Positions 27,479-39,381 of a DNA stretch of 64,000 bases are shown here, piece by piece; the stretch's first letter is position 1; every line of letters begins with the position of its first letter. A model generated the notes under the pieces. It was not told the DNA's origin and ran no database searches. It saw only the letters and a list, made by a program, of their open reading frames with translations. Source of the DNA: Spirochaetota bacterium (GTDB lineage Bacteria; Spirochaetota; UBA4802; JAFGDQ01); the NCBI GenBank assembly GCA_034190085.1, contig JAXHTS010000068.1, positions 62,001-126,000 of the forward strand, in the 5' to 3' direction. The translations under genes were made by a program, and so were the position numbers.

Positions 27479-28926
27479 ATTTAAAATCAATATTAAGAGT
27501 AATAGCATTACTGCTAATTATCATCTCCCTTTTTATGCTAATCCCTACTTTCATAGCATTATACTATAATGAAATACATGAAGCTAAGTGCTTTTTATCT
27601 ACAATGGGAGTAATTTTCATAATCTCATTAGTCGCCCTGGCATTGTCCAGGAATGAGAGGAGGGAGATGCTCTCGATAAAGGATGGCTTTCTTCTTGTGG
27701 CATTAAGCTGGATATGCGCATCACTCTTTGGCGCTATCCCATTCTATATCTCAGGCAATATCCCTAACTTTGCTGATGCAGCCTTTGAGACCATCTCAGG
27801 ATTTACAACTACTGGGGCATCAATATTAACAAATATCGAGAGTTTGCCAAAATCTATACTCCTATGGCGTTCATTAACACACTGGTTAGGGGGTATGGGA
27901 ATCGTTGTATTAGCTGTAGCCATTTTGCCCCTATTGGGAATAGGTGGGTTGCAGCTTATAAAAGCAGAGGCGCCTGGCCCAACCATTGATAAAATTACCC
28001 CGCGAATAGCTGAAACAGCCAAGATACTCTGGTACATCTATTTAGGATTTACAATCGCTGAAATCATTCTCTTAATGATAGGGGGGCTCGATCTTTTTGA
28101 TGCTATGACACATACCTTCGGAACCCTAGCTACCGGAGGCTTTTCACCAAAGAATAGCAGCGTAGGTCATTACAATTCAACCTATATCGATGCCATTATT
28201 ACTTTTTTTATGATTATGGCTGGCATCAATTTTATCCTTCACTATCATATGATAACAGGAAGAATTGGATTTCTTTTAAAAAATACAGAATTCAAGGCCT
28301 ATATACTCATATTTGTGTGTTCGAGTATCTTTATTACCTACGATTTATATGGAAATTTCTGCAACTCTATTGGTCAAAGTCTAAGATATGCCAGCTTTCA
28401 AGTTGCTAGCATCCTAACTACCACCGGTTATGCTACAGCGGATTATGAGAAGTGGCCATTTATGACACAAGCGATCCTATTTATTCTAATGTTTATAGGA
28501 GGTTGCTCAGGCTCAACAGGGGGTGGGATAAAGGTTATCAGAATTATCACACTCTTTAAGCAGGGATTATTAGAAATGAAATACCTCCTCCATCCCAGAG
28601 GAATCTTTATACTCAAGATAAGTGGGAATACAATAAAAAAGGATATTGTACACGCAATATCCAGCTTCTTCTTCCTCTACATATTTTTGCTGCTCCTCGT
28701 AGCATTAGTAGTTGCTTCATCCAAGCAGGATGTTCTAACCTCACTTGCCACCGCTCTTGCTACTGTTGGTAATATTGGGCCAGGCTTTGGGAAAATAGGG
28801 CCAACGGAAAATTATGCCTTTTTCCCAGATTATGTAAAGGGTGTCCTATGCTTCGCCATGTTAGTAGGAAGGCTGGAGGTCTATACCATTCTAATTATTT
28901 TTACTCCCGCCTTTTGGAGAAAGTAG
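27475..28926 (+). CDS. trkH: Trk system potassium uptake protein TrkH
   Basis: TrkH is the membrane channel subunit. The 483 aa form about ten hydrophobic segments with four pore loops whose filter residues can be seen: TTGASIL, TGGFSPKNSS, TTGYATADY and TVGNIGPGF. GGCSGSTGGGIKV precedes the third membrane pair. It is translationally coupled to trkA. Its last 26 bases overlap the end of murJ on the other strand, so the two units converge with no room for a classical terminator. Confidence 0.95.
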   Translation: MNLKSILRVIALLLIIISLFMLIPTFIALYYNEIHEAKCFLSTMGVIFIISLVALALSRNERREMLSIKDGFLLVALSWICASLFGAIPFYISGNIPNFADAAFETISGFTTTGASILTNIESLPKSILLWRSLTHWLGGMGIVVLAVAILPLLGIGGLQLIKAEAPGPTIDKITPRIAETAKILWYIYLGFTIAEIILLMIGGLDLFDAMTHTFGTLATGGFSPKNSSVGHYNSTYIDAIITFFMIMAGINFILHYHMITGRIGFLLKNTEFKAYILIFVCSSIFITYDLYGNFCNSIGQSLRYASFQVASILTTTGYATADYEKWPFMTQAILFILMFIGGCSGSTGGGIKVIRIITLFKQGLLEMKYLLHPRGIFILKISGNTIKKDIVHAISSFFFLYIFLLLLVALVVASSKQDVLTSLATALATVGNIGPGFGKIGPTENYAFFPDYVKGVLCFAMLVGRLEVYTILIIFTPAFWRK

Positions 28927-30478
28927 CCTTTGATATTTTATAAAGCTTATCCCTTACTAATGAAATCTCCTTTACTCCAGCAACAATACAGATTAGGAGA
29001 TATGTTGTTCCACCAACAATTACTATTAAGAGCAAGAATAGTAATCTCTTAGCAAAAGGATCGTTAAACCAGTCAACAAAACCTGAAATGTTCCAGATTA
29101 TATATGCCATCACTAATCCCGAGGCAATATACTTGATTACAGGAAGTATTAACGATTCAATAGAAAGAATGCCTATCCTTCTCTGCAGCCATCCTACAAG
29201 AATTATTGTTTGAACTGTAACAGAAATGGAGTTGGCAAGGGAGAGTCCAGCATGCTTGAGGCTTGTTTGCATAAGCAGATATCCTAGGACAATATTCAGA
29301 ATAAATGCGATTGCAGATGTAATTACAGGCGTTTTTGTGTCCTTTAGTGAGTAAAATGCTGGAGTAGTTATCCTTAAGATGGATATTGATGTGACGCCTA
29401 TGCTGGCGTAAAGGAGGGCTTTATATGTCAAACTCACATGGAGTGGCGTAAACTCACCCCTCATAAAAAGTGTGGATATGATTGGGGTGCCAACTGTCAT
29501 CATCGCGATGCTGGCTGGTATTGCAAGAAAAAGGGAGGCCTTCACAGCGATTATGTATAGACTCTTAAGCCTCTCAAGGTCATTGTTAGCAGAAAAGTTT
29601 GACATCTCCGGCAAAATAACATTGCTAATTGAAAAGATAAAGACGCCTAAAACGATCTCCGTCAATCTGTCAGAGTAATAGAGATAGGATATGCTTCCAG
29701 GCGCGAGCATTGAAGCTAGTATTGTACTCATCAGGATATTTATCTGATATACCGCAATCCCAAAGAGCGCTGGTGTGATCATTCTGAATATCCTTCTTAT
29801 GCCAGGATGTTTCAAATCTACTGAAAATTTTATCCTAAACCCTGTATTTATCAAATAAGGAATCTGTAAAAGCACCTGCAGCAACCCTCCAAAGAGCACC
29901 CCTATGGCTAGTCCATAAAGGGGTTCGTTGAAGAATCTGCTAAAGTAGATAGCACCAATTATAAATCCAACGTTTAGAAGCACAGGCGCAAACGCTGGCG
30001 AGAAGAAGCGTCCGTGAGAATTTAATACACCCATTGAAAATGCCACAAGTCCAACGAGGAAGATATATGGGAATAATATCCTGTTTAAAAACACTGTTAA
30101 ACCAATCCTAGCTGAGTCAGTGAAGCCATAAGCGAAGAGCTTTACAATAGCCGGAGAGAATATCTCCCCTATAACAGTAAATACTATCAATATCAGTATA
30201 AGTATACTTAAGGTCTTCTGAGCCAGTTCCAGGGCCTCTTTATGGTCCCTCTTTGTTAAATACTCAGTATAAATTGGTATGAAGGATATTGTAAGCGCTC
30301 CCTCTGCCACAAGCCTTCTTAATAGATTGGGTATTCTAAAGGCTATGAAGAAGCCATCCAGCTTGCCGGATGCGCCAAAACAATCAGCGATTATCATATC
30401 TCTGATAAAACCTGTAATTCGACTAAATAGTGTCGAGAGGGCAACGATGCTAGTGGATTTTACTAGTGAGTTCTTCAA
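28901..30478 (-). CDS. murJ: Lipid II flippase MurJ
   Basis: MurJ moves lipid-linked peptidoglycan precursors across the inner membrane. The 525-aa polytopic protein has the family N-terminus STLFSRITGFIRDMIIADCF and FRIPNLLRRLVAEGALTISF, with Arg residues lining the cavity. About 14 membrane helices follow. It is the last gene of a unit with the upstream LytTR regulator, which it overlaps by four bases. Co-transcription with a sensor pair is unusual and hints at regulated envelope synthesis, an inference only. Confidence 0.94.
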   Translation of the reverse strand: MKNSLVKSTSIVALSTLFSRITGFIRDMIIADCFGASGKLDGFFIAFRIPNLLRRLVAEGALTISFIPIYTEYLTKRDHKEALELAQKTLSILILILIVFTVIGEIFSPAIVKLFAYGFTDSARIGLTVFLNRILFPYIFLVGLVAFSMGVLNSHGRFFSPAFAPVLLNVGFIIGAIYFSRFFNEPLYGLAIGVLFGGLLQVLLQIPYLINTGFRIKFSVDLKHPGIRRIFRMITPALFGIAVYQINILMSTILASMLAPGSISYLYYSDRLTEIVLGVFIFSISNVILPEMSNFSANNDLERLKSLYIIAVKASLFLAIPASIAMMTVGTPIISTLFMRGEFTPLHVSLTYKALLYASIGVTSISILRITTPAFYSLKDTKTPVITSAIAFILNIVLGYLLMQTSLKHAGLSLANSISVTVQTIILVGWLQRRIGILSIESLILPVIKYIASGLVMAYIIWNISGFVDWFNDPFAKRLLFLLLIVIVGGTTYLLICIVAGVKEISLVRDKLYKISKATFSKRRE

Positions 30479-31221
30479 ATTTTCAATTTTTCCTTAAAAG
30501 TAGTGGCAAATTTTCGTCCAACTGGCAGGGTCGTTTCGTTTTCATCCTTAAGATACACCATATACTGTCCCCCTATAACATACTGAATATGAGAAACAAA
30601 TTGTAGGTTTACAATATATTGTTTATGAATACGAACAAACAAATTCTCTGGAAGCTTTTTCCCAATCTCCTTTAATAGCTGTGCAGTTTCAAAAGATCTC
30701 TCCTCAGTATTAACAATCGTATGAGACGCATGGGAGGAGAGGTATATAATTTCATCAAATGGCAATATATAATGATTCTCATTCTCTTTAAAATATAAAC
30801 CCAACTTATGAGGGAGGTTGAAGGTTTTTTTGTCTTTAATAATAGATATTGCTTTGTCAACAGCCTGATTAAATCTCTTCTTATCAAAGGGTTTAAGTAA
30901 ATAGTCAATGGCTCCAATATCAAAGGCCTTGATAGCATATTTATCATATGCCGTTGTAAAGATCACATAGGGGGAATAATCGAGTCTCTCTATAACCTCA
31001 ATACCGGATAAAATTGGTAGATTTATGTCCAGAAATAATAAATCATACCACTTTGAAGAGAGTAGTTCCAAAGCCTCTTCACCATTACGGGCTATATCCT
31101 CTAAAGTGAGTTCCGGCCTATCAAGAATATATTTGATTAACAATTCTCTAGCAGGCTGCTCATCTTCAGCAAGCACAACAGAAATGTTATTAACCTCTTT
31201 CATCCTCTGATGCCTGTACAA
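30475..31221 (-). CDS. LytTR-family response regulator
   Basis: The 248-aa product has a receiver domain (VVLAEDEQPARELLIKYILD, phospho-Asp in LLFLDINLPILSGIEV, Lys in LLKPFDKKRFNQAV) and a C-terminal LytTR DNA-binding domain from about residue 145 (YLSSHASHTIV, RIHKQYIVNLQFVSHI, LPVGRKF). LytTR proteins bind short direct repeats and often control envelope or exopolymer genes. It overlaps the sensor kinase gene by 22 bases, making the cognate pairing near certain. Confidence 0.93.
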   Translation of the reverse strand: MYRHQRMKEVNNISVVLAEDEQPARELLIKYILDRPELTLEDIARNGEEALELLSSKWYDLLFLDINLPILSGIEVIERLDYSPYVIFTTAYDKYAIKAFDIGAIDYLLKPFDKKRFNQAVDKAISIIKDKKTFNLPHKLGLYFKENENHYILPFDEIIYLSSHASHTIVNTEERSFETAQLLKEIGKKLPENLFVRIHKQYIVNLQFVSHIQYVIGGQYMVYLKDENETTLPVGRKFATTFKEKLKI

Positions 31222-34200
31222 GGTCGGAAATAGATTGACGCAATTACTCCACCATCCTGATTGTTCCGCAACCTTAAATCCGATTCCTCAAAATGATATT
31301 TCAAACGAGCCTTGATATTGCCTAAGCTTCGGGAGTAGATGTCATCAGTCTTTAATCCTGTGCCATTATCCAATATCTCAACGCTTACAATATCATTATA
31401 TCTCGTAGCGTATACCTTCACAAAACCAGGTCCTATCTTCTGTCGTAATCCATGTTTGATTGAATTCCCTACTATAGGCTGAAGAATAAGTGGAGGGATG
31501 AAAACATCACTAAAATTTCCGGCTTTAGATGTTTCAAATGAGAGGGTATCTGAAAAACGAAGCTTCTCAAACTCCAGATAATGTATAACAAACTGCCATT
31601 CCTCTTCAAAAGTAATAAGTGAGTTAAAGGATTTATCCATTAAAAAATGATATATCTCTGCCAGCACAATCATCGCCCTATCCGCCACTTCCACATCCTT
31701 ATGAATTAGGGCATGGATAGTGTGAATGGCATTAAAGAGAAAATGGGGATTCATCCTCTCCTGTAAAATTCTATATTTTGATTCCTCATATTGTCTTATT
31801 AACTTGTCCTTCAGCTTGTCGAGCCTATGCAGTTTTTCAAGAGCTATCTCCTGTTCTCTGTAAAGCTGCGCATTCTCAATGGATATTGCAGCCTGTGTTA
31901 GCAGGAGTTTGAGGACATCGATTCTCTCGGTTGTGAAGATGTCAGTTGCTAAATCATTTTCGAGATAGACAATTGTTATGATTCTGCCGTAGTGTTTTAT
32001 AGGTGTACAGAGGATTGATTTTGCGCTATTTTTTATAATATATGGATCATCAATAAATATACCTTCATTGCTTGCGTTATTTAGAGCCACATCATATCCG
32101 GTTCGTGCAACATAATTTACAATTGATGATGAAAGCTCTTCGCTAGATTCAATTGGAATAGAATTCGAAATGCTTGTATATATATCATGATGCATCCCTT
32201 TGCTAATAATTCTACCTTCCGCTAAAATGAATAATGCGTTATCCCTCTCCTTTATGAGAAAGACCTTACGCGCCCCTGAATTCTGAAGAGCTGCCTTCAT
32301 TATTATCTTGAGGAGTTTGTCAAGATGTATCTCTCTTGATATAGCTTGAATAACATCAAGCATTGTGTTAAAATCCAGTATTGTTGAATCATTGATGTCA
32401 GTCGATTCTCCTCTATCCTCCCATGTCGGGATTATACCGCCATGCTTATATAGAAGCGATGAATATACCTCTTCAAGCTGTTCTGTCTTTGCGGTAGCTC
32501 CCCATTTTTTGTATAGATTATAAGCTTCCTGCATATATGTTCTCGCTATTTTCTCTCTTCCGATTGATAAATAAAATTTTGCGGCCACCTCACATGCAAT
32601 GGCTTCATTTTGAGTGTATCCATTATCATGTGCTGATGCAATAGCCTCATCATATAAGCTCATTGCCTCTTCGTTCCTTTTACTTATACGAGAAATCTCT
32701 CCAGATAGTAAAAGATATTTGTGAAGAAAATTCTCCGGACAGATGTTGGCCCATCTTTTCATCTTCCTTTGATTCTTCTTTAATATTCTCCAATATTTAT
32801 TCTTTTCAGTGTAACTAGCGTCAAGGAGGAGAGGTGAAATGGTTAAGGAATAATAGAAGATATGCTCTGCAACAAATAGTGTCCCAACCTCTGGAATTTT
32901 ATCCAATTCCTTACTTAGTTTATAGCATTCCAGATATTTTTCAAAGAGGAATAGGGTTATTATCCGATTAATGAGTTGCTGAACAATTTCAACAACATTA
33001 TTGCCTTCTCTTATGATGTTTAGCTGTTGATTCTTGTTATAATCGCCATGGATAAAACTGTTTTTATCGGCCGCTAAACCCTTCAAATTTAAATATATAT
33101 GAACGTTGTCAATATATCTAAAAATAATAAATGGATCTTTTGTGTTTCTTAAGAAATCTTCATATTTGGTGTATTCATGAAAAATATCATCCAGATTATC
33201 TCCCATAATAAAGCGATATAGTGTCATAATATTTATACTGTGTCCCGCATAAATAAGATCCCCCGACTCTATGCCAAGCTCATAAGCGCTAACAAAATAT
33301 TTGATACCCTCTCTTGCATGCCCGATCCAGTGTTGAATAAAATATGCAAAACAAAAATCCGTTTTACATTTGATTTTTTTGTTATTGTACTTTTCGCTTA
33401 AATCCAATGCAAGCCTACCGAATTTATTACCCAATTCATATTCACCAAGATATGATCCTATAAGAGCGCTTAGATAAATATACGCAAAGGAGGAGAAGGC
33501 TGTATTTCCATATTTCAAATAAATATCATTTATGCTCTTCAGTCCCAGATAGGCTGACATTTTTGGATTAGAATAATGTGCTGGGGTGCCGATATTACCT
33601 ATTAGATTAACAATTGATAATTGCTCAGGATCATGCAAGTCCTTGAGATTGATTAAGTCTTCAATCTCTCTTCCCCTTAACCTTAACTTTAGCTTCAGTA
33701 ATTCTTTATAGATTGCAAAATTTGTTGGTTGAATCTGAATCTTCACACCGAACATTTTAAGTCCCTCTATACCCAATTTGATTGCTTCCTGAATCTCGCC
33801 TTTGTTAGTACATAATACTATCATCATATTATAAACATTTGCTTTATCAACATCTGTTCTGGCATTGTGAATTATTATATTAAATATGTTTTCAGCCTCA
33901 TCAAAATTTCCTGAAAGATACTCACATTCCGCTCTCTCCTTTAGAATAGAATATGCCAGATAATAATTGCTATCCCAGCAATCCTCTGGCAGAAGCTCCA
34001 TCCCGGTCCTTAAATAATGTACTGCTGCACTATAGGCTGTAGATTCCTTTGCCTTTTCACCAGCCATGAGATTTAACTTTGCCAAATCATTCATCTCATC
34101 TTGATTCACTATCTGGGTAATTCCATGATTAAGCTTGTTTACAATATAATAAATATTCTCCTCTACCTTTTCTCCGGTTGCCTTCTCTAACAGGAACTTA

Positions 34201-36326
34201 CCTATCATAAAATGCAGACGAATCCTCTCCTCATCAGGGATAATAGAATAGACAGCTTCTTGAATCCGATCATGGTTAAATCTATATACATTTCCTGCGA
34301 GACCAATTAGTCCTTCATCAACCGATTCTGAAAGCGCTGAAAGTGTCTTTTCAACAGTCAAGGTAATTACTGTTGACAGAAGGCCTATTTCAAAACTGCT
34401 GCCAATGCAGGCGCATATCTTCAATATGCGCTGTGTGTTTCCCGATAATTTTGTAATCTTATTTGTCAAAAATTCTACAACATTATCTGTAACCTGGATC
34501 TGATTGATCTTTTCTATATCCCATGACCATCCTGAAGCATGATTGAACATTAACATCTTTTCATTATAGAGAGTTTTTATGAATTGAATAACAAAAAAGG
34601 GATTTCCATTTGTCTTCTCATGGGCAGAAGCTGATAGGAGTAACGCCCTCTCCCTCTCACAATTAAACATATGTGCAATCATGTGATTAACATCTATGAC
34701 ATCCAATGGCATCAGTTGGATGTCAGTAATGTGTATTCCTTCCTTTTCTATCTCTTCCAGCATAGAGGATAAGGGATGAGATTTGCATACTTCACCCTCT
34801 CTGTAAGCACCGATTATTAATAGATATTGTATTTCCCTATCAGTTACAAGCACCCTTATCAGGTTAAGGCTGGCTGGGTCTGCCCATTGAAGGTCATCTA
34901 TGAATAGGACTAGGGGATGCTCTTTAATAGCAAATATTCCAACAAATTTTCGAAAATATATATTAAACCTGTTTTGGGCCTCCCTTGGCCCAACGTCAGC
35001 AACCGCTTGTTGCTTGCCGATAATTAGTTCTAATTCTGGTATTACATCTATTAAAATTTGAGCATTTGGGTTTAGGTTTTCCAAAATCTTTTCGCGTAAC
35101 GACTGCATCTCCTCGCTGCTTTCAGACAAAACTTGCTTTATTAACAATCTAAAAGCCTGAATAATAGCGCTGTAAGGGATATCTCTTGTGAATTGCTCAT
35201 GTTTACTGGAGATGAAATATCCACTCTTCGACACTACAGGTTTATGCATCTTGTTTATTAACGCAGTCTTGCCGATACCTGCTTGTCCTGTAACTAACGA
35301 CAAACCAGCGCCCTTCCGCTCTACATTATTATGAAGGAATAATTGGGGATTGCATACCCTATCAAAAGCCTGCATTAGGAGTTCGATTTCTTTATCCCTA
35401 CCAAAGATTTTATCAGAAATCAGTAGTCTTTTGCTGACATCCTTCAAACCCAGAGTAAATGGTTTAATCACCCCTGCTTTTTCAAATTGGCTTTGGCATT
35501 TTTTTAAATCCATCCTCAAGCCCTTGGCGCTCTGATACCTCTCTTCAGGTTTTTTCGACAGCAATTTTATAGTAATATCAGAGATCACCTCAGGGATATT
35601 CTTGTTAATCGTTTTTGGCTCAATAGGCTTTTGTGCGATTTGGCAGTGAATGAGTTGAAGGGTGTCATCGGAATTAAAGGGAACATCATTCATGAGCATT
35701 TCATAGAGGGTAATGCCAAGAGAGTACAAATCAGACCTATAATCAATTACCCTGTTGATGCGTCCGGTCTGTTCTGGAGATATATATTCTAAAAAAGTGT
35801 CATAGAGGCTAGGGGAGGTAGTAATCTGTTGATCTTCTTGTAAGCTGTGATACGCATTCCCAAAGCCGGTAATTTTAACCTGAAGATCTTCTATTTCATT
35901 TATTTCAGAGATTGGGGAGATGAGGATATTATCTGGGTTTATTCCGCAGTGGATTATATTATTATTATGAATCTCCGATAGGATTTCTGTTAGCTTAATG
36001 GCAATTTGAAGAAAAAGATCAATGTTTATTCTATTGCTATAGATCAAGCATCTAAGTGGAATGCCAATAAAATCATCAAATATTATTGCATGAATATTGT
36101 TATAATTCTCAAGAGCAATGGCCCGAACTACACCTTCAATGTTAAGGTTTTCAGTTATTATAAACTCATTTATTAGTCTATTGATATCCTTGATGCTTGG
36201 ATATTCGCTTGTAGGTGTTTTTATAAGAACTGATTTTTTATCATAATTCCTGAAACCTCGATAAAGTGCTGTTTTAGTATTCTTAACAATTTCCTCTGAG
36301 GATTTATAACCTTGAAGATTTATCAT
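31200..36326 (-). CDS. Giant hybrid sensor: protein pseudokinase, AAA-type ATPase, GAF and LytS-type histidine kinase
   Basis: This 1708-aa protein contains, in order: a Ser/Thr-kinase-like domain (about 5-280); an ATPase with Walker A GQAGIGKT at 347-354 and Walker B LVLFIDDLQWAD near 472-483; a long TPR-like helical section (about 650-1310); a GAF domain (about 1335-1490); and a histidine kinase of the LytS class with phospho-His1528 in MNPHFLFNAIH, an N box (QPIVGNSIKHG) and a G box (DNGTG). The kinase lobe keeps Lys36 (VLIK), but its catalytic loop reads HCGINPDN (126-133) and its DFG reads GFG (154-156), so both catalytic Asp are Gly. It should act as a binding or sensing module. Output goes to the overlapping LytTR regulator. 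No membrane segments are seen. Confidence 0.9.
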   Translation of the reverse strand: MINLQGYKSSEEIVKNTKTALYRGFRNYDKKSVLIKTPTSEYPSIKDINRLINEFIITENLNIEGVVRAIALENYNNIHAIIFDDFIGIPLRCLIYSNRINIDLFLQIAIKLTEILSEIHNNNIIHCGINPDNILISPISEINEIEDLQVKITGFGNAYHSLQEDQQITTSPSLYDTFLEYISPEQTGRINRVIDYRSDLYSLGITLYEMLMNDVPFNSDDTLQLIHCQIAQKPIEPKTINKNIPEVISDITIKLLSKKPEERYQSAKGLRMDLKKCQSQFEKAGVIKPFTLGLKDVSKRLLISDKIFGRDKEIELLMQAFDRVCNPQLFLHNNVERKGAGLSLVTGQAGIGKTALINKMHKPVVSKSGYFISSKHEQFTRDIPYSAIIQAFRLLIKQVLSESSEEMQSLREKILENLNPNAQILIDVIPELELIIGKQQAVADVGPREAQNRFNIYFRKFVGIFAIKEHPLVLFIDDLQWADPASLNLIRVLVTDREIQYLLIIGAYREGEVCKSHPLSSMLEEIEKEGIHITDIQLMPLDVIDVNHMIAHMFNCERERALLLSASAHEKTNGNPFFVIQFIKTLYNEKMLMFNHASGWSWDIEKINQIQVTDNVVEFLTNKITKLSGNTQRILKICACIGSSFEIGLLSTVITLTVEKTLSALSESVDEGLIGLAGNVYRFNHDRIQEAVYSIIPDEERIRLHFMIGKFLLEKATGEKVEENIYYIVNKLNHGITQIVNQDEMNDLAKLNLMAGEKAKESTAYSAAVHYLRTGMELLPEDCWDSNYYLAYSILKERAECEYLSGNFDEAENIFNIIIHNARTDVDKANVYNMMIVLCTNKGEIQEAIKLGIEGLKMFGVKIQIQPTNFAIYKELLKLKLRLRGREIEDLINLKDLHDPEQLSIVNLIGNIGTPAHYSNPKMSAYLGLKSINDIYLKYGNTAFSSFAYIYLSALIGSYLGEYELGNKFGRLALDLSEKYNNKKIKCKTDFCFAYFIQHWIGHAREGIKYFVSAYELGIESGDLIYAGHSINIMTLYRFIMGDNLDDIFHEYTKYEDFLRNTKDPFIIFRYIDNVHIYLNLKGLAADKNSFIHGDYNKNQQLNIIREGNNVVEIVQQLINRIITLFLFEKYLECYKLSKELDKIPEVGTLFVAEHIFYYSLTISPLLLDASYTEKNKYWRILKKNQRKMKRWANICPENFLHKYLLLSGEISRISKRNEEAMSLYDEAIASAHDNGYTQNEAIACEVAAKFYLSIGREKIARTYMQEAYNLYKKWGATAKTEQLEEVYSSLLYKHGGIIPTWEDRGESTDINDSTILDFNTMLDVIQAISREIHLDKLLKIIMKAALQNSGARKVFLIKERDNALFILAEGRIISKGMHHDIYTSISNSIPIESSEELSSSIVNYVARTGYDVALNNASNEGIFIDDPYIIKNSAKSILCTPIKHYGRIITIVYLENDLATDIFTTERIDVLKLLLTQAAISIENAQLYREQEIALEKLHRLDKLKDKLIRQYEESKYRILQERMNPHFLFNAIHTIHALIHKDVEVADRAMIVLAEIYHFLMDKSFNSLITFEEEWQFVIHYLEFEKLRFSDTLSFETSKAGNFSDVFIPPLILQPIVGNSIKHGLRQKIGPGFVKVYATRYNDIVSVEILDNGTGLKTDDIYSRSLGNIKARLKYHFEESDLRLRNNQDGGVIASIYFRPCTGIRG

Positions 36327-37340: not shown

Positions 37341-38397
37341 ATGAAATTACCAATAAGACTATTAACTATCATAAGGCAAGATCAGAATAAGGAAAAATAC
37401 GATGAATTTCAACAATATCTTGAATTTTTATGCAAGGGATTAGGGCATGCAGATCGGGCAACAGGATTGATCGATTATTGTAAAGGTTTAATGTTACCAA
37501 TTGAACAAAAAAGTATAGAACCGCTAGCAGCATATAGCGATCCCTATAATGTACAAGCAAAACATCAATCATTACATCACTTTATAGCTAAGTCAGATTG
37601 GTCAGATCAATCGGTACTATCATTAGTGTTTCAGGGAGTAATGCCCTGGTTGTCAACTGGGAATAGTTTTATTGGGTTATTGATGATAGCTATATTCCTA
37701 AAAAAGGAATCCATTCAGTTGGTGTAAGTCGACAATACTGTCGTCAATTAGGCAAACAAGTGAATTGTCAGGTAGCAGTAAGTCTTTCATTAGCTACTGA
37801 AAAAGGCAGCATACTAATTGATTATAGATTATATATACTAAAAGAATGGGCAGATGATTCACAACGGTGTAAAAAAGCAGGTATTCCCGAGGATATTTAT
37901 TTTCAGACAAAACCTAACATTGCATTAGAGCAGATCAGAAGAGCAAAGCGATCAAATATTCCAATCAGTAAAGTATCAGCAGATGCAGGTTATCTTGATA
38001 TTACTGATTTTCGAGATGCTATTAGATCAGAAGGATTGACTTATGCAGTTGGAATTAAACCAAATACATGAGTCTGGACAATAGATAATAAACCGTTACT
38101 TCCAGATGAATGGCAAGGCAAAGGACGTAAACCAATACTTTTAAGGCGGGGGATAGGTGATCAACCCAAACTTGTAAAGATAATAGCAATGGAATTATCT
38201 ATAAAATCATATCGTAAGATTACTTGGCTGGAAGGGACTAATAGTAAATTGTCTTCTCGATTTGCGCGGCTTAGAGTCTTCTCAGCCAATAATGATTATT
38301 TAAGAGATACTATGCGAGATGAGGAATGGCTGGTTATTGAATGACCGGAAAACGAAAAGAAGCCAACAAAGTATTGGTTATAGACTTTGCCTGTTAG
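37341..38397 (+). pseudogene. Broken IS701-like (DDE) transposase
   Basis: The frames join into one IS701-type transposase: CKGLGHADRATGLIDYCKGL and SLHHFIAKSDWSDQSVL in the first frame; then a frameshift near 37660-37680 into WVIDDSYIPKKGIHSVGVSR (first catalytic Asp) and NCQVAVSLSLATEKGS; then VSADAGYLD (second Asp). In-frame stops follow at 38069 (after GIKPNT), 38342 (where EEWLVIE-stop-PENEKKPTKYWL should read through Trp) and 38384. The C-terminus beyond this is not recognisable. The element cannot be mobile by itself. Confidence 0.85.
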
Positions 38398-38570: not shown

Positions 38571-38661
38571 ATAATAAATAATTATAATCCTACTTAATAT
38601 TTTCATTTTGGATTATGCGGGTTATGTAAAAAATTGTTTAATTTTAATTAAGGAGAAAAAA

Positions 38662-39381
38662 ATGAAAAAAGTACTGCCAATTTTGTTTATATTAACAATG
38701 CTTACTGCCTGCAACGAGTATATTCCAGACGAAGATTATGCAAAGGCGGATGAAGGCGCGCAGACGGACGTAAGCGCAATGGTTCAGATCGACAGGGTCG
38801 AACAAAAAGTAGTAAAAACATCAGCGAAAAGTTTAATTGTAGATTCAAGTAAAGTTAGTATGAATAACATAACAAGTATAAACCTAGAATTGGAAAATGG
38901 CGCAAAAGTTGCTCTATCGATTGTTAACGAAAGAAACGAAGCGTTTGTGAGTTATATGGATAGCGGAGAGATATTTATATCGGAAAAAGTAGATTTGCAA
39001 TCTGTTGAAAATGGAGAAATAAAAGATTGCGAATTATACGCAAAAAGCGGAGAATCGGTTTTAATAACGCTTGAATATGAAATAAGCGGCATTCTGGAAG
39101 CTACAAAATTTGATGTTGATGAAATTTTCTCAAATATGTCAGAACAAGAGAGTATTTATAATAGAACTAGTACTAGCGGTTGTAATATACATGGTGTATG
39201 CTGCGATCCGTACAATTATTACTGTTGTAATTTTAATGATTGTGGGTGTGCAATGGATGCTTATAATGCAATGGAGCACCAGTGGCTGTTTTGTGCGGCT
39301 CTTGGCGGAGGCGTTTGGTGTAATTATTTCTTAAATGCCCGTAATTACTGGTGGGATAAGGTGACTCATTGGTGTAACTAA
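38662..39381 (+). CDS. Lipoprotein with a Cys/Trp/Tyr-rich C-terminus
   Basis: ATG 38662, with AAGGAG upstream, starts a 239-aa protein with a textbook lipoprotein signal (MKKVLPILFILTMLTAC, lipobox LTAC). Residues 20-170 are acidic and beta-prone (ISVNLELENG-type strands, for example SINLELENGAKVALSIV). The last 65 residues change character and hold eleven Cys, in clusters such as HGVCCDPYNYYCC, DCGCAMDA and THWCN, with many Trp and Tyr. Such a tail suggests a disulfide- or metal-stabilised exported domain. A strong terminator follows. No family recognised. It sits between two dead transposases, so transfer is likely. Confidence 0.75.
   Translation: MKKVLPILFILTMLTACNEYIPDEDYAKADEGAQTDVSAMVQIDRVEQKVVKTSAKSLIVDSSKVSMNNITSINLELENGAKVALSIVNERNEAFVSYMDSGEIFISEKVDLQSVENGEIKDCELYAKSGESVLITLEYEISGILEATKFDVDEIFSNMSEQESIYNRTSTSGCNIHGVCCDPYNYYCCNFNDCGCAMDAYNAMEHQWLFCAALGGGVWCNYFLNARNYWWDKVTHWCN

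What the first reader, a model, noticed from the sequence alone, without database searches (positions are those of the whole stretch)
31200..36326. Hybrid sensor whose Ser/Thr kinase domain has lost both catalytic aspartates
The catalytic loop reads HCGINPDN and the DFG motif reads GFG, while the ATP-binding Lys36 and the SPE motif remain. Kinases normally need both Asp residues. The giant protein therefore seems to use a pseudokinase as a ligand or nucleotide sensor ahead of an ATPase, GAF and a LytS-type histidine kinase. Known large STK-ATPase-histidine kinase hybrids usually end in a classical HisKA domain; ending in a LytS-type one with a LytTR partner is less usual.
Basis: partly seen in the sequence, partly recalled or inferred. 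Interest (0 to 1): 0.58.

Follow-up and report, generated by a model that had tools for sequence, protein, structure and literature searches.

The report
Dead kinase heading a LytS-type sensor
A very large bacterial sensor protein carries a protein-kinase domain that has lost the residues needed for catalysis and is joined to an intact histidine-kinase output; such dead kinase heads are already described, but in this bacterial order their death tracks which output domain the protein carries.

Summary
The 1708-aa ORF (31200-36326, minus strand) is Pkinase, AAA_16 ATPase, TPR-like repeats, GAF, LytS-type His_kinase and HATPase. The kinase keeps Lys36 and Glu54, but HRD reads HCG and DFG reads GFG. 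A LytTR response regulator overlaps its stop codon. The kinase domain models as a normal kinase fold (pLDDT 91), so it is a pseudokinase by sequence; no activity was tested.

The kind is known: O'Boyle 2025 describes CP1 kinases, ATPase-linked, about 40% pseudokinases, two in Leptospira. HisKA-ended relatives are the HstK/cbSTKIII kinases.

New here: (1) the LytS ending is rare (4 of 167 relatives with a readable output); all four lack the HRD Asp and have a LytTR partner next door; (2) in the window's own order, kinase state follows output: SpoIIE-phosphatase-ended proteins lost a catalytic residue in 3 of 26, all other outputs in 40 of 53, and rows fetched after the idea was formed agree. 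Outside the order this is not confirmed (other spirochaetes 4/19 vs 5/20).

Whether the window kinase died independently of the other LytS-ended ones is unresolved. Most likely role: a non-catalytic input arm on an ATPase switch that gates LytS.

The parts
31200..36326 (-). 1708-aa hybrid sensor, whole ORF
35523..36266 (-). Ser/Thr kinase-fold domain (residues 21-268), pseudokinase
   Evidence: Pfam Pkinase 2.4e-21; AlphaFold2 pLDDT 91.4, pTM 0.91; Foldseek best PDB hits Stk1/PknB
36219..36221 (-). beta3 Lys36, retained
35928..35951 (-). catalytic loop HCGINPDN (residues 126-133), HRD Asp replaced by Gly
35859..35867 (-). GFG (residues 154-156), DFG Asp replaced by Gly
34812..35408 (-). AAA_16 ATPase (COG3899-like), Walker A GQAGIGKT at residue 347, Walker B-like FIDDLQWAD at 475
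   Evidence: TIGR03903 matches 307-718 below its cutoff
32427..34226 (-). helical/TPR-like region (residues about 701-1300)
   Evidence: sub-cutoff TPR matches; conserved in relatives
31878..32324 (-). GAF domain
31545..31778 (-). LytS-type His_kinase domain, NPHFLFN at residue 1526 (31731-31751)
   Evidence: PDB 6swj histidine kinase 4.4e-14
31335..31487 (-). HATPase_c region with NSIKHG and DNGTG motifs
30475..31203 (-). LytTR response regulator, 242 aa from ATG 31203 (ATGA overlap with sensor stop)
28901..30478 (-). MurJ, TTGA overlap with the regulator stop, so probably co-transcribed; not next to the system in the three relatives examined

Best explanation
A cytosolic two-component sensor. 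Shown by sequence: a kinase-fold domain lacking both catalytic Asps, an ATPase with intact Walker motifs, TPR-like repeats, a GAF domain, a LytS-type histidine kinase with intact motifs, and a translationally overlapping LytTR regulator. Inferred: the ATPase-TPR core works as a nucleotide switch like STAND proteins; the kinase-fold head and the GAF domain are input arms that set this switch by binding (nucleotide, small ligand or partner protein) without phosphotransfer; the switch controls the LytS dimer, which phosphorylates the LytTR regulator and changes transcription, perhaps including murJ in the same operon. The head descends from a live kinase; its activity became dispensable because the output no longer works through Ser/Thr phosphorylation.
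For: Catalytic residues gone but fold, Lys36 and Glu54 kept; beta3 Lys kept in 4 of 4 LytS-ended members, HRD Asp lost in 4 of 4. Walker and LytS motifs intact. All four LytS-ended genes are followed by a LytTR regulator (window, L012, L046, L047; the three others 53-54% identical to the window's). The same ATPase-GAF body carries many outputs: HisKA, LytS, SpoIIE, cyclase, GGDEF/EAL, AraC, LytTR, STAS, sigma54, so the head must signal through the body. In the window's order, loss is rare with SpoIIE (3/26) and common with other outputs (40/53; Fisher 1e-7 without tree correction; Pagel LR 21.1, p 3e-4).
Against: No biochemistry. The association with output is not seen in other spirochaetes (4/19 vs 5/20) or Sorangium, and cyanobacterial HisKA-type members stay intact in 33 of 34. 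The kinase domain is more diverged, relative to its ATPase, than in nearly all intact members (118 of 123), which also fits slow decay. No ligand is known.
Confidence: 0.55

Rival explanations
1. Vestige: the head is a decaying remnant left after the protein was fitted with a LytS output, kept only because the body needs a folded N-terminus.
For: Heterogeneous loss patterns across the family; faster divergence of lost kinase domains relative to the ATPase (all rows, p 3.8e-6; within the order only p 0.066); in the window's own ATPase clade its kinase identity to mates is 38-43% against 44-60% among the mates.
Against: Whole domain, fold, Lys36-Glu54 and SPE region retained; retained in 4 of 4 LytS-ended members. 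Some relatives lack aligned segments of the head (L033, L025; L033 may be cut by its locus end), so it may be losable.
Confidence: 0.25
2. Atypical enzyme: the domain keeps another activity (phosphotransfer without the usual Asps, or AMPylation- or glutamylation-like chemistry as in SelO or SidJ).
For: Lys36, Glu54 and N133 are kept; repurposed pseudokinases are documented (PMC12599244, section 4 part 1 read).
Against: HRD and DFG Asps and the loop Lys are all missing; no acidic replacement near GFG; D132 also occurs in live members (HRDIKPDN), so it is no compensating change.
Confidence: 0.08
3. Inherited set (a rival on history, not on function): pseudokinase, LytS domain and LytTR regulator share one origin with the other LytS-ended systems, and only the ATPase-TPR core was swapped for that of a SpoIIE-ended relative; the catalytic loss would then be older and not convergent.
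For: One clade is not rejected for kinase domains (p 0.44; 56/60 support with long rows removed), histidine-kinase domains (p 0.066) or regulators (p 0.469), while it is strongly rejected for the ATPase-TPR part (p 2.7e-50). Kinase and ATPase trees disagree even without the window (p 0.0145), so domains do shuffle.
Against: The window kinase inside the live spirochaete clade is not rejected either (p 0.108); its seven best kinase matches are all live.
Confidence: 0.4

Closest known systems
CP1 bacterial Ser/Thr kinases and pseudokinases (O'Boyle 2025, PMC12599244; sections 4 part 1, 10, 14 and passages read)
   Same: Kinase domain joined to a COG3899-type ATPase and GAF, no membrane span, about 40% with mixed loss of catalytic motifs; two members in Leptospira interrogans.
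   Different: The sections and passages read name FhlA/GAF and PAS partners but no LytS or LytTR output and no link between catalytic loss and output domain.
HstK / cbSTKIII hybrid kinases of cyanobacteria (PMC2176072, passages read)
   Same: N-terminal kinase, GAF, C-terminal histidine kinase.
   Different: HisKA output and KD-type intact kinases; the window has LytS output and HCG/GFG.
LytS/LytTR two-component systems
   Same: PF06580 kinase plus adjacent LytTR regulator.
   Different: Usual inputs are membrane sensors (recalled; here 7TMR-DISM in three relatives of the order); the window has a soluble pseudokinase-ATPase input.
STAND-type NTPase switches such as MalT (recalled, no call)
   Same: ATPase followed by helical repeats that control an attached output; several relatives end in AraC or LytTR DNA-binding domains.
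   Different: Kinase-fold head at the N-terminus and histidine-kinase output.
Mycobacterial MviN/MurJ pseudokinase (in PMC12599244, passages read)
   Same: A pseudokinase connected with MurJ.
   Different: There it is fused to MurJ; here murJ is only the next gene but one, and not in the relatives examined.

Membership tests
Pseudokinase (sequence definition) | one or more of beta3 Lys, HRD Asp, DFG Asp missing in a kinase-fold domain | tested here: met
   HRD and DFG Asps are Gly; fold predicted at pLDDT 91.4
Pseudokinase (biochemical definition) | no phosphotransfer | not testable with these tools
   needs purified protein
CP1 | linked to a COG3899 ATPase | tested here: inconclusive
   AAA_16 and TIGR03903-like ATPase directly after the kinase; the COG3899 model itself is not available here
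CP1 | no transmembrane region | tested here: inconclusive
   Hydropathy only: best 19-residue window 1.65, inside the ATPase part, no clear span; no dedicated predictor run
CP1 | family-specific residue constraints of the published 42-family scheme | not tested
   patterns not at hand
HstK/cbSTKIII | C-terminal HisKA histidine kinase | tested here: not met
   PF06580 His_kinase instead
HstK/cbSTKIII | KD-type catalytic loop | tested here: not met
   HCG
LytS/LytTR two-component system | PF06580 kinase with NPHF, N-box and DNG motifs plus adjacent LytTR regulator | tested here: met
LytS/LytTR two-component system | phosphotransfer from this LytS to this regulator | not testable with these tools
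   no assay
STAND-type switch | Walker A and B in the ATPase | tested here: met
   GQAGIGKT 347, FIDDLQWAD 475
STAND-type switch | nucleotide-driven oligomerisation | not testable with these tools
   no assay

The most novel reading that the evidence does not exclude
In this spirochaete order the fate of the kinase head on these hybrids is set by the output: with a SpoIIE phosphatase the head stays a live kinase (a kinase-phosphatase pair on one chain), and with a LytS, LytTR or AraC transcription output it is turned into a non-catalytic input arm. The same body thus alternates between Ser/Thr signalling and transcription signalling by swapping its tail and silencing its head.
Probability: 0.4. 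Interest if true: 0.65.

Novelty: new variant of a known kind. Interest (0 to 1): 0.48.

Why it matters
Bacterial pseudokinases on ATPase bodies are listed but almost nothing is known of what they do (PMC12599244, section 10). A natural series of near relatives with live and dead heads on different outputs, in one order, lets the role of the head be tested by domain swaps and point mutants, and suggests that loss of kinase activity follows a change of output rather than random decay.

Tried and rejected
Rejected: sequencing error as cause (two separate Asp-to-Gly sites plus further loop changes; all LytS-ended relatives also lack the HRD Asp). Rejected: D132 as a replacement catalytic Asp (present in live members). 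Rejected: MurJ control as a conserved role (the genes after the regulator differ in three relatives). Not shown: convergent loss in the window; I first read the ATPase-TPR tree as proof and withdrew that after the kinase tree. Not general: output rule outside the order. The sign test on independent pairs stayed short of significance (median p 0.0625 for the order, 0.125). Led nowhere: promoter scan (42 found, 41.5 expected); paper searches for LytS-ended pseudokinase hybrids.

Counting notes: outputs were assigned by clustering C-termini with one or two Pfam-checked representatives per cluster, except that the large SpoIIE cluster was first recognised by motif and its two named members include only one Pfam-checked (L097); GGDEF by motif; hold-out rows by profiles built from those clusters. 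L025 as LuxR rests on a Pfam score below cutoff. 221 ORFs were collapsed to 191 by removing duplicates; 24 of 191 have no readable output and are left out of output counts. Two rows (L091, L140) count as lost only through an alignment gap. Of the 27 hold-out loci, 2 had no readable output. Not every lower-ranked family hit was fetched, and one search scored only two candidates per genome. The Pagel tests use FastTree trees with midpoint rooting.

Full report
Observation. The reading is right. The ORF at 31200-36326 (minus) gives 1708 aa with Pkinase, AAA_16, GAF and LytS-type His_kinase domains, and a LytTR response regulator follows. The loop is HCGINPDN and the DFG site GFG; Lys36, Glu54, N133 and SPE are present. 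The regulator starts inside the sensor stop (ATGA, 31203-31200), and murJ inside the regulator stop (TTGA), so the three genes look like one transcript. This is the only PF06580 kinase found in the genome (1 match).

Place. The genome's own name is hidden. Spirochaetota is inferred: a named Leptospirales contig of 73,230 bases (L164) has the length of G215:C92 and was merged with its stretch as a duplicate, and G215 is a genome of the same phylum as the window's.

Family survey. The genome holds three other long relatives (HisKA-type at C52 and C4, GGDEF-ended at C50) and a fragment. I collected 191 distinct ORFs with kinase and ATPase from spirochaetes and from 80 named loci of other phyla. 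One or more of beta3 Lys, HRD Asp and DFG Asp is missing in 68 of 191. By output, for the 167 with readable C-terminus: LytS 4 of 4 lost, AraC 7/8, LytTR 2/2, LuxR-like 1/1, GGDEF 5/11, HisKA-type 32/84, cyclase 4/14, SpoIIE 6/41, STAS 0/1, AAA_35 0/1. HisKA-type members are intact in 33 of 34 cyanobacterial cases and lost in 13 of 16 Pseudomonadota cases. Pseudokinases on this architecture are therefore common, as O'Boyle 2025 states for CP1.

LytS-ended members. L012/L204, L046/L205 and L047/L206 have HNN, HNN and HTG in place of HRD; a further relative, L208, is cut off by its contig end before the output and has HNN. Each of the three LytS-ended loci has a LytTR regulator directly after the sensor. 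In L047 the sensor is split by a frameshift. Other LytS kinases of the order carry 7TMR-DISM inputs (three examined).

Evolution. On the ATPase-TPR part the window protein lies in a 100%-supported group with SpoIIE-ended L009 and L084, HisKA-type L210 (all intact) and GGDEF-ended L227, and one clade of LytS-ended proteins is rejected (p 2.7e-50). The kinase domain tells another story: its tree disagrees with the ATPase tree even without the window (p 0.0145), a clade of LytS-ended kinases is not rejected (p 0.44), and the window inside the live spirochaete clade is not rejected either (p 0.108). The histidine-kinase (p 0.066) and regulator (p 0.469) trees do not reject one origin. So domains were shuffled, and I cannot say whether the kinase died in the window lineage or came dead with the LytS/LytTR set. 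All seven best kinase matches are live.

Output and decay. The idea came from the first sample of the window's order. In the first full count of the order SpoIIE-ended members had lost a residue in 2 of 16 and others in 28 of 38 (Fisher 5e-5); Pagel's test gave LR 20.9 with 0 of 100 simulations as high. I then fetched 27 further loci of the order: 25 had a readable output, SpoIIE 1 of 10 lost, AraC 12 of 15 lost. Six of those 25 had been seen before with the kinase but not the output; of the 19 never seen before, SpoIIE 1 of 5 and AraC 12 of 14 (Fisher 0.017). Together: SpoIIE 3/26, others 40/53 (AraC 19/23, HisKA-type 11/20, GGDEF 3/3, LytS 4/4, LytTR 2/2, LuxR 1/1), LR 21.1, p 3e-4. Against it: the paired test that uses only supported branches is not significant (median p 0.125); other spirochaetes show nothing (4/19 vs 5/20); other phyla have too few SpoIIE members (0/6 vs 22/68, p 0.17); in Sorangium, by my count, histidine-kinase-ended members are lost in 9 of 18 and STAS-ended in 4 of 11.

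Rate. Against intact relatives, the window kinase is more diverged relative to its ATPase than 32 of 33 intact members of the order (118 of 123 overall), motif columns left out. Lost kinases as a group are faster overall (p 3.8e-6), not clearly so within the order (p 0.066). Relaxed or changed constraint fits; outright decay does not, as the fold is predicted well and resembles PknB and Stk1.

Mechanism. Read together: an ATPase switch with TPR-like repeats gates a LytS dimer, and the kinase-fold head and the GAF domain are its inputs. That the head binds something is inferred from the kept fold and Lys36-Glu54; that it does not transfer phosphate is inferred from the lost Asps. Neither was tested.

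Literature. O'Boyle 2025 (PMC12599244): outline, sections 4 (part 1), 10, 14 and passages read. PMC2176072: passages read. Other papers: search listings only. The searches listed no paper whose title or shown abstract describes a LytS-ended hybrid of this kind or a link between pseudokinase state and output; papers outside that library were not seen.

Noticed in passing
window 37341-38071 (+): DDE_5 transposase fragment (37341-37727) and a further short ORF beside it, looking like a broken insertion element upstream of the sensor gene.
   Followed up: no
window 38608-39381 (+): Lipoprotein-like ORF with a cysteine-rich C-terminus; only a sub-cutoff lipoprotein-signal match in Pfam.
   Followed up: no
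L023, L033, L071, L074, L077, L078, L278-L280, L282, L284, L286, L287, L292, L293, L299-L304: Kinase-ATPase proteins ending in an AraC DNA-binding domain, most with dead kinase heads (19 of 23): one-component transcription factors on the same body.
   Followed up: partly
L069 and L070: Kinase-ATPase proteins ending directly in a LytTR DNA-binding domain, grouping with LytS-ended relatives on the ATPase-TPR tree.
   Followed up: partly
L229-L261 (Sorangium cellulosum So0157-2): One genome with 40 listed matches to this family; 11 fetched members end in STAS domains, one in Hpt-HATPase, one in an HWE kinase.
   Followed up: partly
L047 / L206: LytS-ended sensor split by a frameshift into two overlapping ORFs; real or assembly error unknown.
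   Followed up: no
L144, L160, L169, L178, L190, L193, L200: Seven of 16 Pseudomonadota HisKA-type members share another loss pattern: beta3 Lys and DFG Asp gone (GFG), HRD Asp kept.
   Followed up: no
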